From Desulfococcus multivorans (lineage in GTDB: Bacteria; Desulfobacterota; Desulfobacteria; Desulfobacterales; Desulfococcaceae), in assembly GCF_001854245.1 (NCBI RefSeq), contig NZ_CP015381.1, positions 1,204,001 through 1,268,000 on the forward strand: 64,000 nt of DNA, read 5' to 3'. Made by a program: the position numbers and the translations under genes. Below the pieces are notes generated by a model, which was given only the letters and a program-made list of their open reading frames with translations, ran no database searches and was not told the origin of the DNA. Shown in pieces: positions 39,692 through 57,213 of this stretch. The first letter of the stretch is position 1. Each line of letters starts with the position of its first letter.

Positions 39692-39815
39692 CGGCAAGCG
39701 GCTCCATCCGAAAAATATCGAACCTGTCAATCCAGCGATCCATTGCAGAGGGGTATAGCGCCCTTACCGGATTCTGCCATTTCCCTACCAAATATTTTTG
39801 TCGGTCAAATATATT

Positions 39816-39894
39816 ACTCAACTTCCACTTTCATGAGCCGTATGCTCCCGGCACCTCTATCCGATCACCATCATGAAAGTCGAAAGTTGAGTTA
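39816..39894. repeat. 79-bp dispersed repeat with terminal inverted repeats, copy 1
   Basis: The left end (ACTCAACTTCCACTTTCATG) is nearly the reverse complement of the right end (CATGAAAGTCGAAAGTTGAG), so the unit can fold as a long hairpin. The core contains CCGTATGCTCCCGGCACC. A second copy lies at 56790-56868; about 65 of 78 aligned positions agree by eye. No coding capacity. It resembles a REP or MITE-like element. Confidence 0.8.
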
Positions 39895-39984
39895 TTAGAA
39901 TTCCAGTTGATTGTCGTCGTATCGCAACAGCGTCTTCGATACCTTTTTATGTTCATGCACTATATGACATTCATTTTATTAAGC

Positions 39985-40014
39985 TTGACACATAGAATAA
40001 TTTTCTATTATAGA
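39985..40014 (+). promoter_or_regulatory. Promoter of the first propionyl-CoA synthetase gene
   Basis: A perfect TTGACA at 39985-39990 and TATAGA at 40009-40014 with an 18-bp spacer, in the AT-rich 490-bp gap after the LUD gene. A leader of about 160 nt follows. The GAGCGCTC operator seen before the second paralogue is absent here. The rest of the gap (39692-39815) shows nothing recognisable. Confidence 0.55.
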
Positions 40015-40181
40015 TTGTTTCTAATTAAATCCAACCGAATCGAGTTGAGATGTGTCCGTACCGAAAGTTCATTCGCGTTGCGGTCGCACGCGTTGGAGAT
40101 GTCGAGAAGGTCTGCGCAAAAAGAGGTGTTTCTGTTCAGAGGTTCCAAAGACGTAACCGTTCAAGATGAGGAGTGGAGAAT

Positions 40182-42086
40182 ATGACCAATTTATACGATG
40201 AGGCCTACCAGAAATCATTGAAGGATCCTGAAGGGTTTTGGGGGAAAGCCGCGGAAGACTGTCATTGGTACAAGAAATGGGACAAGGTCCTGGACGACTC
40301 CAATAAACCGTTCTACCGATGGTTCGTCGGCGGAGAAATCAATACCTGTTACAATGCACTCGATTTTCATGTCGACAACGGACGGGGGGATCAGCCCGCA
40401 CTGATCTATGACAGTCCCGTGACGAACACCATCAAGAAATACACCTATCGCCAACTCCGGGACGAGGTAGCGAAGTTTGCGGGTGTTCTGGCGGGGCAGG
40501 GCGTTATAAAAGGGGACCGCGTCATTATCTACATGCCGATGATTCCCGAAGCGGCCATTGCCATGCTGGCTTGTGCCCGCATCGGTGCCGTTCATTCCGT
40601 GGTGTTCGGGGGCTTTGCATCCAAAGAACTCGCCACCCGAATCCAGGACGCCAAGCCCAAAGTCATGGTATCGGCCTCATGCGGCATCGAAGTTCAGCGG
40701 GTTATCAAGTATAAACCCCTTCTGGACGAGGCCATCAACATCTCCAGCCACAAGCCGGAGAAATGTATCATATTCCAACGTCCGATGGAAACCGCTTCCC
40801 TGATCGAGGGACGGGACCTGGACTGGAACGCGGCGATGGCGGATGCCAAGCCGGTGGACTGCATTCCCTTAGCCGCTACGGATCCTTTGTACATTCTTTA
40901 TACTTCGGGAACCACCGGACAGCCCAAAGGCGTGGTGCGGGACAATGGGGGCCATGTGGTCGCCCTGAAGTGGACCATGAAAAACATTTATGATGTGGAT
41001 GCGGGTGATGTTTACTGGGCCGCCTCGGACGTCGGATGGGTTGTAGGTCATTCCTACATCGTTTACGGCCCTCTGTTCAAGGGATGCACGACCATCCTGT
41101 TCGAGGGGAAACCGGTTGGTACGCCGGATGCGGGCGTCTTCTGGAGGGTTATCTCGGAGCACGGCGTCAAGTCCCTTTTTACCGCACCGACGGCGTTTCG
41201 GGCTATCAAGCGGGATGACCCCAAAGGAGAATTGATCAAAAAATATGATCTTTCCAATTTTAAGATCCTCTTTTTGGCGGGCGAGCGCTCGGATCCGGAT
41301 ACCATAAAGTGGTCCGAGGACAATCTCAAGGTTCCGGTCATCGACCACTGGTGGCAAACTGAAACCGGTTGGGCCATTTGCGCAAATTGCATGGGGCTGC
41401 ATCGATTTCCCGTAAAATACGGCTCGCCGACGAAGGCGGTGCCGGGCTGGAATGTTCAGGTCGTCGACCCGGATTGCAAGCAGATCGGTCCGGGAGAAAT
41501 CGGGGCACTGGTCGTCAAACTGCCCTTGCCGCCTGGCGCACTTCCAACATTATATCAGAATGATGCGCGTTACAAGGAGTCTTACCTGGATGAATTTCCG
41601 GGGTATTACAAAACTGCCGATGCCGGGTATATCGACGAAGAGGGCTATGTCTACGTCATGTCCCGAACCGACGATATCATCAACGTCGCGGGTCATCGCC
41701 TTTCCACCGGGGCCATGGAGGAGGTCCTATCCGACCATCCGGATGTGGCGGAGTGTGCGGTTCTGGGCGTGGAAGACAAGCTCAAGGGGCAGGTGCCGGT
41801 GGGATTTCTGGTCCTGAAGGCAGGCGTGTCAAAATCCCATGACGACATCGTCAAGGAGGTGGTTCAGATGGTGCGGGATCGCATCGGACCCGTGGCTGCC
41901 TTCAAAACTGCAACCGTGGTCAAGCGATTACCCAAAACCCGTTCCGGCAAAATTTTAAGGGGCACCATTCAGAAGATAGCCGACAACCAGGAATACAAAG
42001 TCCCTGCGACGATTGATGATCCGTCGATTCTCGCTGAGATGGAAGAGGCTTTGAAATCCATCGGTCTCGCCGGTGCGCGAAAATAA
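40182..42086 (+). CDS. prpE: Propionyl-CoA synthetase-like AMP-forming ligase, paralogue 1
   Basis: ATP-dependent ligase of 634 residues in the acetyl/propionyl-CoA synthetase family. Seen are MPMIPEAAIAMLACARIGAVHSVVFGG, the P-loop YTSGTTGQPKGVVRDNGG, SDVGWVVGHSYIVYGPL, WWQTETGW, and the C-terminal catalytic Lys in LPKTRSGKILRGTIQKI, usually controlled by acetylation. The VVRDNGGH form after the P-loop points to the PrpE/ACSS3 branch over acetyl-CoA synthetase. I use ATG 40182, matching the paralogue's start; GTG 40173 sits within the ribosome-binding site. The next gene, 616 bp on, is its near-duplicate. Substrate is inferred. Confidence 0.88.
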   Translation: MTNLYDEAYQKSLKDPEGFWGKAAEDCHWYKKWDKVLDDSNKPFYRWFVGGEINTCYNALDFHVDNGRGDQPALIYDSPVTNTIKKYTYRQLRDEVAKFAGVLAGQGVIKGDRVIIYMPMIPEAAIAMLACARIGAVHSVVFGGFASKELATRIQDAKPKVMVSASCGIEVQRVIKYKPLLDEAINISSHKPEKCIIFQRPMETASLIEGRDLDWNAAMADAKPVDCIPLAATDPLYILYTSGTTGQPKGVVRDNGGHVVALKWTMKNIYDVDAGDVYWAASDVGWVVGHSYIVYGPLFKGCTTILFEGKPVGTPDAGVFWRVISEHGVKSLFTAPTAFRAIKRDDPKGELIKKYDLSNFKILFLAGERSDPDTIKWSEDNLKVPVIDHWWQTETGWAICANCMGLHRFPVKYGSPTKAVPGWNVQVVDPDCKQIGPGEIGALVVKLPLPPGALPTLYQNDARYKESYLDEFPGYYKTADAGYIDEEGYVYVMSRTDDIINVAGHRLSTGAMEEVLSDHPDVAECAVLGVEDKLKGQVPVGFLVLKAGVSKSHDDIVKEVVQMVRDRIGPVAAFKTATVVKRLPKTRSGKILRGTIQKIADNQEYKVPATIDDPSILAEMEEALKSIGLAGARK

Positions 42087-42702: not shown

Positions 42703-44610
42703 ATGACCAATCTGTACGATGAAGCGTATCGACAATCGATTCAAGATCCTGAGACGTTTTGGGGTAACGCGGCAGAGGACATTCATTGGTACAAAAAATA
42801 CGAAAAGGTGTTGGATGACTCCAAAAAGCCTATGTATCGGTGGTTTGCGGGCGGAGAACTGAACACCTGCTATAATGCTTTGGATGTTCACATCGACAGG
42901 GGTCGAGGAGACAGGGTAGCGCTCATTTACGACAGTCCGGTCACCCAGACTATAAAAAAGTATACCTACAGGGACCTGAGAGACGAGGTGGCCAAATTCG
43001 CCGGTGTTTTGGTTGAGCAGGGAGTGGTTAAGGGCGATCGCGTCGTCATCTACATGCCCATGATCCCTGAAGCGGCTGTCGCCATGCTGGCCTGCGCCCG
43101 TATCGGTGCGATTCATTCCGTGGTCTTTGGAGGATTTGCAGCCAAGGAACTCGCCACGCGCATCAACGATGCGACCCCCAAGGTCATCGTGTCGGCTTCT
43201 TGCGGCATCGAGGTCACTCGCGTCATAAAATACAAGCCGCTTCTGGACGAAGCCATCTCACTTTCCGCCGTGAAACCCGAAAAGTGCATCATTTTTCAGC
43301 GTCCCCAGGAAATCGCTGCCTTGACACCGGGTCGCGATATCGACTGGGCTGCCGCTATGACCAATGCCCAGCCCGTCGACTGTGTCCCCGTGGCCGCGAC
43401 AGATCCCCTTTACATCCTTTACACCTCCGGCACTACGGGTCAGCCCAAAGGTGTCGTTCGAGACAACGGTGGGCATGCGGTTGCCTTGAAATGGACCATG
43501 AAGGCGATTTACGATATCGATGAAGACGACGTCTGGTGGGCGGCATCGGATGTCGGCTGGGTCGTCGGTCACTCCTACATCGTTTATGCGCCGCTGTTCA
43601 AGGGGTGTACATCGGTTTTTTTTGAGGGAAAACCCGTCGGTACTCCGGATGCCGGGGTTTTCTGGCGGGTCATTTCGCAGCATCGGGTCAAATGCATGTT
43701 CACCGCACCCACCGCCTATCGTGCCATCAAGCGGGAGGATCCCAAAGGACTTCTCGTGAAAGACTACGACATGTCCTCCTTCAAGATTCTTTTCCTGGCT
43801 GGAGAGCGATCCGATCCGGATACCATTCAATGGTCTGAAAAAAATTTGAACGTACCGGTCATCGACCACTGGTGGCAAACGGAAACGGGTTGGGCCATTG
43901 CTGCAAACTGCATGGGATTGCACCATTTTCCGGTAAAATATGGATCGCCGACCAAAGGGGTTCCGGGTTGGGACGTCCAGGCCCTCGACGAGTCCTGCAA
44001 CCAGATGGCTCCAGGGGAGATCGGCGCATTGTCGGTCAAACTGCCGTTGCCTCCGGGCACGCTTACGACGCTTTGGCAGAACGATAGGCGCTTCGTCGAG
44101 TCTTATATGGAAGAGTATCCCGGGTATTACAAGACCGCTGATGCGGGGTATATCGATGATGAGGGATATGTGTATGTCATGTCCCGAACGGACGATATCA
44201 TCAATGTCGCGGGGCATCGCCTTTCAACAGGCGCCATGGAAGAGGTCCTGGCCGATCATCCGGAGGTTGCCGAATGCGCAGTCCTGGGGGTGGCGGACAA
44301 CCTGAAGGGACAGATTCCCATCGGCTTTCTGGTGCTGAATGCCGGTGTCGAAAGGAGCCATGACGAGATTATCCGGGAGGTTGTTCAGATGGTTCGGGAA
44401 CGCATCGGGCCCGTGGCGGCGTTCAAAAAAGCGACAGTGGTCAAGCGTCTTCCCAAGACACGCTCCGGAAAAATTTTGAGGGGGACCATCCAGAAAATCG
44501 CGGATAACCAGGATTACAACGTCCCGGCGACCATCGACGATCCCACAACCCTGGGGGAGATGGCCGAAGCGCTCTCCAAAATTGGTCTTGCGAAAGCGCG
44601 TCAAGCGTAA
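42703..44610 (+). CDS. prpE: Propionyl-CoA synthetase-like AMP-forming ligase, paralogue 2
   Basis: A 635-residue tandem duplicate of the preceding gene; 48 of the first 61 residues are identical by my count. All catalytic landmarks recur: YTSGTTGQPKGVVRDNGG, SDVGWVVGHSYIVYAPL, WWQTETGW and LPKTRSGKILRGTIQKI. The copies differ in control: this one has two GAGCG-type operators and its own promoter, while the first has neither operator. That suggests one constitutive and one inducible enzyme, or split substrates. A good GGGAGA site precedes the ATG, and a strong terminator follows. Confidence 0.88.
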   Translation: MTNLYDEAYRQSIQDPETFWGNAAEDIHWYKKYEKVLDDSKKPMYRWFAGGELNTCYNALDVHIDRGRGDRVALIYDSPVTQTIKKYTYRDLRDEVAKFAGVLVEQGVVKGDRVVIYMPMIPEAAVAMLACARIGAIHSVVFGGFAAKELATRINDATPKVIVSASCGIEVTRVIKYKPLLDEAISLSAVKPEKCIIFQRPQEIAALTPGRDIDWAAAMTNAQPVDCVPVAATDPLYILYTSGTTGQPKGVVRDNGGHAVALKWTMKAIYDIDEDDVWWAASDVGWVVGHSYIVYAPLFKGCTSVFFEGKPVGTPDAGVFWRVISQHRVKCMFTAPTAYRAIKREDPKGLLVKDYDMSSFKILFLAGERSDPDTIQWSEKNLNVPVIDHWWQTETGWAIAANCMGLHHFPVKYGSPTKGVPGWDVQALDESCNQMAPGEIGALSVKLPLPPGTLTTLWQNDRRFVESYMEEYPGYYKTADAGYIDDEGYVYVMSRTDDIINVAGHRLSTGAMEEVLADHPEVAECAVLGVADNLKGQIPIGFLVLNAGVERSHDEIIREVVQMVRERIGPVAAFKKATVVKRLPKTRSGKILRGTIQKIADNQDYNVPATIDDPTTLGEMAEALSKIGLAKARQA

Positions 44611-56789: not shown

Positions 56790-56868
56790 AACTCGACTTT
56801 CGACTGTCACAGGCCGTATCCTCCCGGCACCGCTTTCCGGTCACCATCATGAAAGTCGAAAGTTGAAT
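56790..56868. repeat. 79-bp dispersed repeat with terminal inverted repeats, copy 2
   Basis: Same element as at 39816-39894, in the same orientation. The right end, CATGAAAGTCGAAAGTTGA, is identical, and the core reads CCGTATCCTCCCGGCACC. It occupies the gap between divergent dfx and the DUF294 gene. The remaining 345 bp to 57213 show no feature I recognise. Confidence 0.8.
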
Positions 56869-57213
56869 AGAGAAGCTTCATTTATATCATCTCCGCGTAA
56901 TTTTTCAACGCGTCGGGAGAAACCATGCTAAGGTTCGGTTGTCTATCGCGAGGGCGGATCAGGGATACGCTCCGCAGCATCGCCTGTTATTGCCGAACTC
57001 TAAATAGGAACAATTCCTAATTAACAAATATCCAGCTTTGTTTCAAGGATTTTATTCTGTACTGTTTTGACGGTCGGCCTCATAAGACCCTTTTTGAGGT
57101 ATCTGTAATCGATTTGACGACAGGCTGTCGGGTACGGGAGGCTTCGATCTGAAAACGGTCGTTTTTGATGAACAGTTTTAGCCCCGTGTGGGAAGAGACA
57201 GGGTGTGCGGTTA

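What the first reader, a model, noticed from the sequence alone, without database searches (positions are those of the whole stretch)
39816..39894. Dispersed 79-bp element with terminal inverted repeats
Seen: two copies in one 64-kb window, both intergenic, same orientation, about five sixths identical, with ends that are near reverse complements and a GC-rich core. It carries no gene. Such units may be REP/MITE-like, moved by a transposase elsewhere, or act as transcript stem-loops.
Basis: seen in the sequence. Interest (0 to 1): 0.55.

Follow-up and report, generated by a model that had tools for sequence, protein, structure and literature searches.

The report
Hairpin MITE family in Desulfococcus
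The small repeat is one of well over a hundred copies of a gene-less jumping DNA hairpin in the sulfate-reducing bacterium Desulfococcus multivorans, and most shorter copies, including the two seen here, look like cut-down versions of a longer 240-base hairpin.

Summary
The window lies in Desulfococcus multivorans DSM 2059. The unit is 75-76 bp (39817-39891, 56792-56867) with inverted ends. Its left-end and right-end 25-mers each match 168 times genome-wide (control 0). I recovered 141 paired copies (control 1); 69 of 141 have exact flanking direct repeats of 6-9 bp (about 1.5 expected), target-site duplications with mode 7 bp. Of 58 genomes of the order searched, only this one and one other Desulfococcus hold the family. 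It is a MITE family of the QMITE2/Chunjie sort, not REP/REPIN. No transposase with matching ends was found in what I examined.

Of 111 shorter copies, 84 fit one internal deletion of it. Its arms change together, within and between species. The 76-bp class points the same way relative to replication in 25 of 30 copies, independent of flanking genes.

Inference: a transposase spread the hairpin; replication slippage and template switching trimmed it and kept its arms matched. MITE identity is firm; the trimming model is plausible but unproven. New member of a known kind.

The parts
39817..39891 (+). Copy 1 of the short (76-bp) class, 75 bp, CTCAAC...GTTGAG
   Evidence: Its left end has lost a base, so it is not among the 141 paired copies; its right end is listed unpaired (1243873)
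39817..39835 (+). Left terminal inverted repeat of copy 1 (imperfect)
39873..39891 (+). Right terminal inverted repeat of copy 1
   Evidence: exact 18-mer match list
39811..39816 (.). Left side of the presumed target-site duplication of copy 1, ATATTA (5 of 6 match)
39892..39897 (.). Right side of the presumed target-site duplication of copy 1, TTATTA (5 of 6 match)
56792..56867 (+). Copy 2 of the same class, 76 bp, CTCGAC...GTTGAA
56785..56791 (.). Left side of the presumed target-site duplication of copy 2, TAAAGAA (6 of 7 match)
56868..56874 (.). Right side of the presumed target-site duplication of copy 2, TAGAGAA (6 of 7 match)

Best explanation
The repeat is a non-autonomous DNA transposon (MITE). 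SHOWN: fixed ends; flanking direct repeats, mode 7 bp at the commonest boundary; 141 paired copies in several size classes; restriction to two Desulfococcus genomes among the 58 of the order searched; absence at the one orthologous site examined; a longer form, about 238 bp, that folds as one hairpin. INFERRED: a DDE-type transposase, lost, diverged or not sampled, moved the units with a staggered cut of 6-8 bp. The 238-bp hairpin is the parent; the 76-bp class arose from it by deletion between two GGCCG repeats, probably more than once, by replication slippage across the hairpin. Template switching within the hairpin copies changes from one arm to the other and so keeps the ends symmetrical. 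My odds by step: MITE 0.93; short forms are deletion derivatives 0.8; slippage and template switching as the cause 0.5.
For: Duplications: 69 of 141 paired copies with 6 or more exact bases, shuffled mean 1.5, max 5 of 500; at the commonest boundary 16 of 113 have 6, 29 have 7, 4 have 8. Duplicated bases 76% A+T. Paired copies 141, reversed control 1. Mostly intergenic: 19 of 141 inside an ORF call against 3545 of 5000 random placements. Long form folds with z -13. 84 of 111 shorter copies fit one deletion; the commonest junction (23 copies) is a GGCCG direct repeat. Compensatory pairs: 93 cells at 28 of 63 pairs, shuffled mean 16; matched end changes 17 against 5.6, 0 of 2000 shuffles. Right-arm variants cut across size classes. 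Class 72: 25 of 30 copies aligned with the fork. Element absent at the LUD-acs locus of the relative.
Against: No autonomous partner found. Duplication length varies (6-8), which some DDE families show but which leaves the enzyme open. 27 of 111 shorter copies do not fit a single deletion, the fourth commonest junction has no direct repeat, and the mean repeat over 30 junctions is only 1.5 against 0.78 at random. Class 55 and the mixed rest are not fork-aligned (6 of 16; 10 of 27). The polarity was noticed before it was tested. Selection for a hairpin, or exchange between copies, could also give matched arms and shared variants. The shuffles do not remove relatedness.
Confidence: 0.75

Rival explanations
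1. Each size class is an independent MITE subfamily with a single founder deletion, which then spread as a short unit; orientation bias comes from insertion linked to the replication fork.
For: Class 72 copies that keep their duplication are 14 of 15 fork-aligned, as expected if insertion itself is polar; junctions within a class are identical.
Against: Arm variants such as TCATCGTC and TTACCATC and the end change T6G occur in several classes; class 55 and full-length copies lack a clear bias.
Confidence: 0.3
2. REP/REPIN elements moved as single strands by a RAYT (Y1) transposase.
For: Hairpin form with compensatory changes, which are also reported as common in REPINs (PMC3116915, passages); one Y1 gene in the genome.
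Against: Target-site duplications; the Y1 gene has no copy of this repeat beside it (read by eye), whereas REPINs lie beside their RAYT in that paper; ends lack a GTAG-type tag (recalled feature).
Confidence: 0.03
3. A selected functional site, for example a polar chromosome signal or a transcript stem-loop, that keeps its hairpin and orientation because they are useful.
For: Strong hairpins with compensatory changes; replichore polarity of class 72.
Against: Orientation is independent of both neighbouring genes; no terminator-like site near copy 1; absent at the one orthologous locus examined; many decayed size classes.
Confidence: 0.08

Closest known systems
QMITE2 of Coxiella burnetii (review PMC10969869, passages)
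   Same: About 190-bp hairpin MITE, 7-9 bp direct repeats, TIRs 23-29 bp, many shortened copies, and used as an insertion site by an IS1111 (IS110-type) element
   Different: Different organism; the review reports a GTAG palindrome there. I did not compare sequences
Chunjie MITE of Geobacter uraniireducens (same review)
   Same: 235-bp full-length form, intergenic, copies of 178-235 bp plus partial copies, conserved TIRs and direct repeats
   Different: Sequence not held, so kinship not tested; here many copies are only 53-76 bp
REPIN/RAYT system (PMC3116915, passages)
   Same: Small intergenic hairpins with compensatory changes in high copy number
   Different: Here target-site duplications occur and no RAYT lies beside a copy
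Template-switch correction of quasipalindromes (PMC8794818, abstract and outline; PMC6357072, passages)
   Same: Predicts matched changes in both arms of a hairpin and dependence on the replicated strand
   Different: Those works concern RNA genes and a lacZ reporter; here it is inferred for a mobile family

Membership tests
MITE | Short (<500 bp), no coding capacity | tested here: met
   75-76 bp here; long form about 238 bp
MITE | Terminal inverted repeats | tested here: met
   141 end pairs, reversed control 1; folds
MITE | Flanking direct repeats from target duplication | tested here: met
   69 of 141 with 6 or more exact bases, 1.5 expected
MITE | Multiple dispersed copies, mostly intergenic, AT-rich targets | tested here: met
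   168 left ends and 168 right ends; 19 of 141 inside ORF calls; duplicated bases 76% A+T
MITE | Element itself AT-rich (typical, not required) | tested here: not met
   GC 0.49 and 0.54 with a GC-rich core
MITE | Autonomous transposon with matching ends | tested here: inconclusive
   None among end pairs in the 624,718 bases examined nor at the ends of the four-copy 1981-bp DDE IS; ends of the other DDE loci were not determined and other families were not searched
REP/REPIN | RAYT (Y1) gene beside a copy | tested here: not met
   One Y1 gene; flanks unrelated by eye
REP/REPIN | No target duplication (recalled) | tested here: not met
   Duplications present
Known Rfam RNA | Match to a curated RNA model | tested here: not met
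   Window: none at gathering; four loci at E up to 1: a tRNA and one sub-threshold hit, both in L206 upstream of its repeat copy

The most novel reading that the evidence does not exclude
Each copy lands as a 238-bp all-hairpin unit and is then trimmed in place by replication slippage. Which short form results depends on the element's orientation to the replication fork, while template switching keeps rewriting one arm from the other. The genome would then hold over a hundred natural replicates of hairpin mutagenesis, and the 76-bp repeat would be mainly a scar of fork direction.
Probability: 0.3. Interest if true: 0.6.

Novelty: new member of a known kind. Interest (0 to 1): 0.4.

Why it matters
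MITEs are known; this is a well-populated family in a sulfate reducer that my paper searches and the passages found in the genome paper do not describe. The added value is that a parental hairpin, its deletion products, its matched arms and its orientation to replication can all be read in one genome. Ideas about palindrome deletion and template switching, studied in reporter genes, could be tested on natural copies; if class and orientation are truly linked, the repeats record fork direction.

Tried and rejected
Autonomous partner. Three end pairs lie exactly 1923 bp apart. Two (401781, 887501) are long copies holding an IS110-type element of about 1.69 kb at the same position; their arms differ at 8 positions and the IS at 1, so I read them as two independent IS110 insertions into the hairpin, not as the parent. 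The third (3369002) holds ORFs that do not look like transposases. A pair 1429 bp apart (2346108) holds a 467-aa ORF that, by eye, is not a transposase. The remaining wide pairs are combinations with the 887501 cluster or rest on an end with 4 mismatches. DDE_Tnp_1: 11 loci scanned for the end; the four-copy 1981-bp IS has other ends; for the other loci IS ends were not determined, and L295 lies beside one more short copy. RAYT link: rejected (by eye). Plasmids and phages: no match to the long form. Viral contigs: 0 for the left end, 2 single matches to the bare end without a partner. Genome collection: 8 stretches, 7 in the Desulfococcus assembly and 1 single end without a partner of matching spacing in a Prevotellaceae assembly. 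Rfam: nothing. Orientation set by transcription: rejected. The middle motif as a wider module: 21 and 10 matches in the two Desulfococcus genomes, four 2-mismatch matches in two others.

Limits of the counts. Pattern searches list only the first 100 places, so 141 is a large sample, not a census; it includes some degenerate pairs, and it leaves out window copy 1. One search scored 40 of 258 candidates. Five of 141 copies without clear orientation were left out of the orientation counts. For the relative, 5 of the 10 loci were used in the pair count; the other five were cut by contig ends or incomplete. Gene calls are a simple longest-ORF scheme.

Failed calls. One search stopped with a script error; a simpler script ran.

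Full report
What it is. The genome in which the window lies has 4,455,399 bases in one contig, the size printed for Desulfococcus multivorans DSM 2059 (PMC5109826, passages). The passages found there mention transposases and CRISPR but not this repeat. No held paper has 'Desulfococcus multivorans' with 'MITE'. One paper has 'Desulfococcus' with 'miniature inverted-repeat' and was seen in the listing only.

The unit. The window copies are of one class, 75-76 bp, CT|CAACTTTCGACTTTCATAGGCCGTATCCTCCCGG...CACCATCATGAAAGTCGAAAGTTG|A(A/G). Copy 1 is 39817-39891 with ATATTA/TTATTA at its sides, copy 2 is 56792-56867 with TAAAGAA/TAGAGAA. Those two pairs alone would be weak. Family-wide, 69 of 141 paired copies have 6 or more exact duplicated bases; shuffled mean 1.5, maximum 5 in 500 shuffles. 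At the commonest boundary, of 113 copies then in hand, 16 have 6, 29 have 7 and 4 have 8 bases.

Spread. Left-end and right-end 25-mers have 168 matches each at up to 3 mismatches, reversed control 0. In a search of 58 genomes, this one has 172+185 matches to an 18-base end and the one same-genus genome 26+10. Of the other 56, eight have matches: seven have one each, and G011 has 22 against 53 for its control pattern; I take these as chance, and three of the eight read out showed a single end only. The relative has a variant end (CGAGTTTC); matching contig positions identify it as an uncultured Desulfococcus assembly. At its LUD-acs locus no copy is present while a stretch upstream of acs is conserved; the spacer is too diverged to show the empty target itself.

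The parent form. Copies of 233-235 bases between the CAAC and GTTG marks (about 238 with the ends) number 25 of 141. One of them folds as a single hairpin, z -13 as DNA and as RNA. It has two inverted copies of the core that the 76-bp class has once. Of 111 shorter copies with clear orientation, 84 fit one internal deletion of the long consensus with at most 15% mismatches. The commonest junction (23 copies) lies in a GGCCG direct repeat; two others (12 and 7 copies) in CCGG; one (11 copies) has no direct repeat. Over 30 distinct junctions the mean repeat is 1.5 against 0.78 for random deletions: a modest excess that rests on the common junctions.

Arms that change together. In an alignment of 25 long copies of D. 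multivorans and 5 of the relative, 28 of 63 pairs have a change on both sides; 93 such cells, shuffled mean 16, maximum 26 of 300. Within D. multivorans 10 cells (mean 1.0, max 4), within the relative 12 (mean 3.9, max 8). Shuffling does not remove relatedness, so the within-species figures are the better evidence. The two ends of single copies also share changes: 17 matched double changes, 5 unmatched, 276 single; 5.6 matched expected, 0 of 2000 shuffles as high. Six of the 17 are the same change (T6G), in copies of 62, 69, 72 and 99 bases. Template switching is a known route to such changes (PMC8794818, abstract and outline; PMC6357072, passages); selection for a hairpin is another, and REPINs show them too (PMC3116915, passages).

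Orientation and replication. GC skew over the sampled stretches changes sign near 2.35 Mb. Copies reading along the direction of the fork: class 72, 25 of 30 (p 0.0003); class 59, 16 of 20 (p 0.012); class 62, 10 of 13; full-length, 16 of 24; class 55, 6 of 16; 138/139, 3 of 6; others, 10 of 27. The classes differ (chi-square p 0.0013), and class 72 stays at 24 or 25 of 30 for terminus positions from 2.0 to 2.5 Mb. Flanking genes do not explain it: 51% of 631 rough gene calls are leading; copies between two genes of the opposite direction are fork-aligned in 22 of 28, between two of the same direction in 21 of 30, in the two mixed settings in 18 of 30 and 12 of 21. Class-72 copies that keep their duplication are 14 of 15 fork-aligned, the others 11 of 15. 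I saw the bias before testing it and compared several classes, so it needs an independent census. That strand-dependent deletion at asymmetric palindromes is known from plasmid work in E. coli is recalled, not looked up here.

One event or many. Right-arm variants cut across classes: TCATCGTC occurs in classes 55, 72, 59 and the full-length form; TTACCATC in the full-length form and in classes 55, 62, 138, 72 and others. That favours repeated deletion, or exchange between copies, over one founder per class. It does not show that deletion happens at the site of insertion.

Relation to IS110. Two long copies carry an IS110-type element (PF01548, PF02371) at the same internal position; the IS parts differ at 1 position, the arms at 8. 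Two further relatives of the protein, one a fragment, lie elsewhere; whether they sit in hairpins was not worked out. The review reports the same relation for QMITE2 and IS1111 (PMC10969869, passages). The seekRNA and bridge-RNA papers were seen in the listing only.

Verdict. It is a MITE family with an unknown transposase; REP/RAYT is disfavoured. The hairpin parent, matched arms and replication polarity make it a better than average example; trimming in place is a testable proposal, not a result.

Noticed in passing
G000:C1:401779-403705 and 887499-889425 (L124:1000-2925): An IS110-type element of about 1.69 kb sits at the same position inside two long copies of the repeat; further right-hand parts of the repeat follow at 889.8, 890.4 and 890.8 kb, as if the region had been duplicated.
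   Followed up: partly
L061 (G000:C1:3819045-3822374): The single Y1 (IS200-like) transposase gene is flanked on both sides by a different repeated sequence with GGGGTCGGGCCAAGCCAA-type ends, perhaps its own mobile unit.
   Followed up: no
window 40173-42086 and 42703-44610: Two neighbouring acetyl-CoA-synthetase-like genes in tandem (71% identical DNA over 300 bases; the first matches ACAS_N and AMP-binding).
   Followed up: no
window 39969-40005: A stretch upstream of the first acs-like gene is conserved in the Desulfococcus relative although the rest of the spacer is not; it may be a promoter.
   Followed up: no
for example G000:C1:93438, 375825, 2697734, 4079019: Right ends of the repeat joined to a different inner sequence (CTTCAGTCTCTATCCGG...), which suggests a second, related repeat family or recombined copies.
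   Followed up: no
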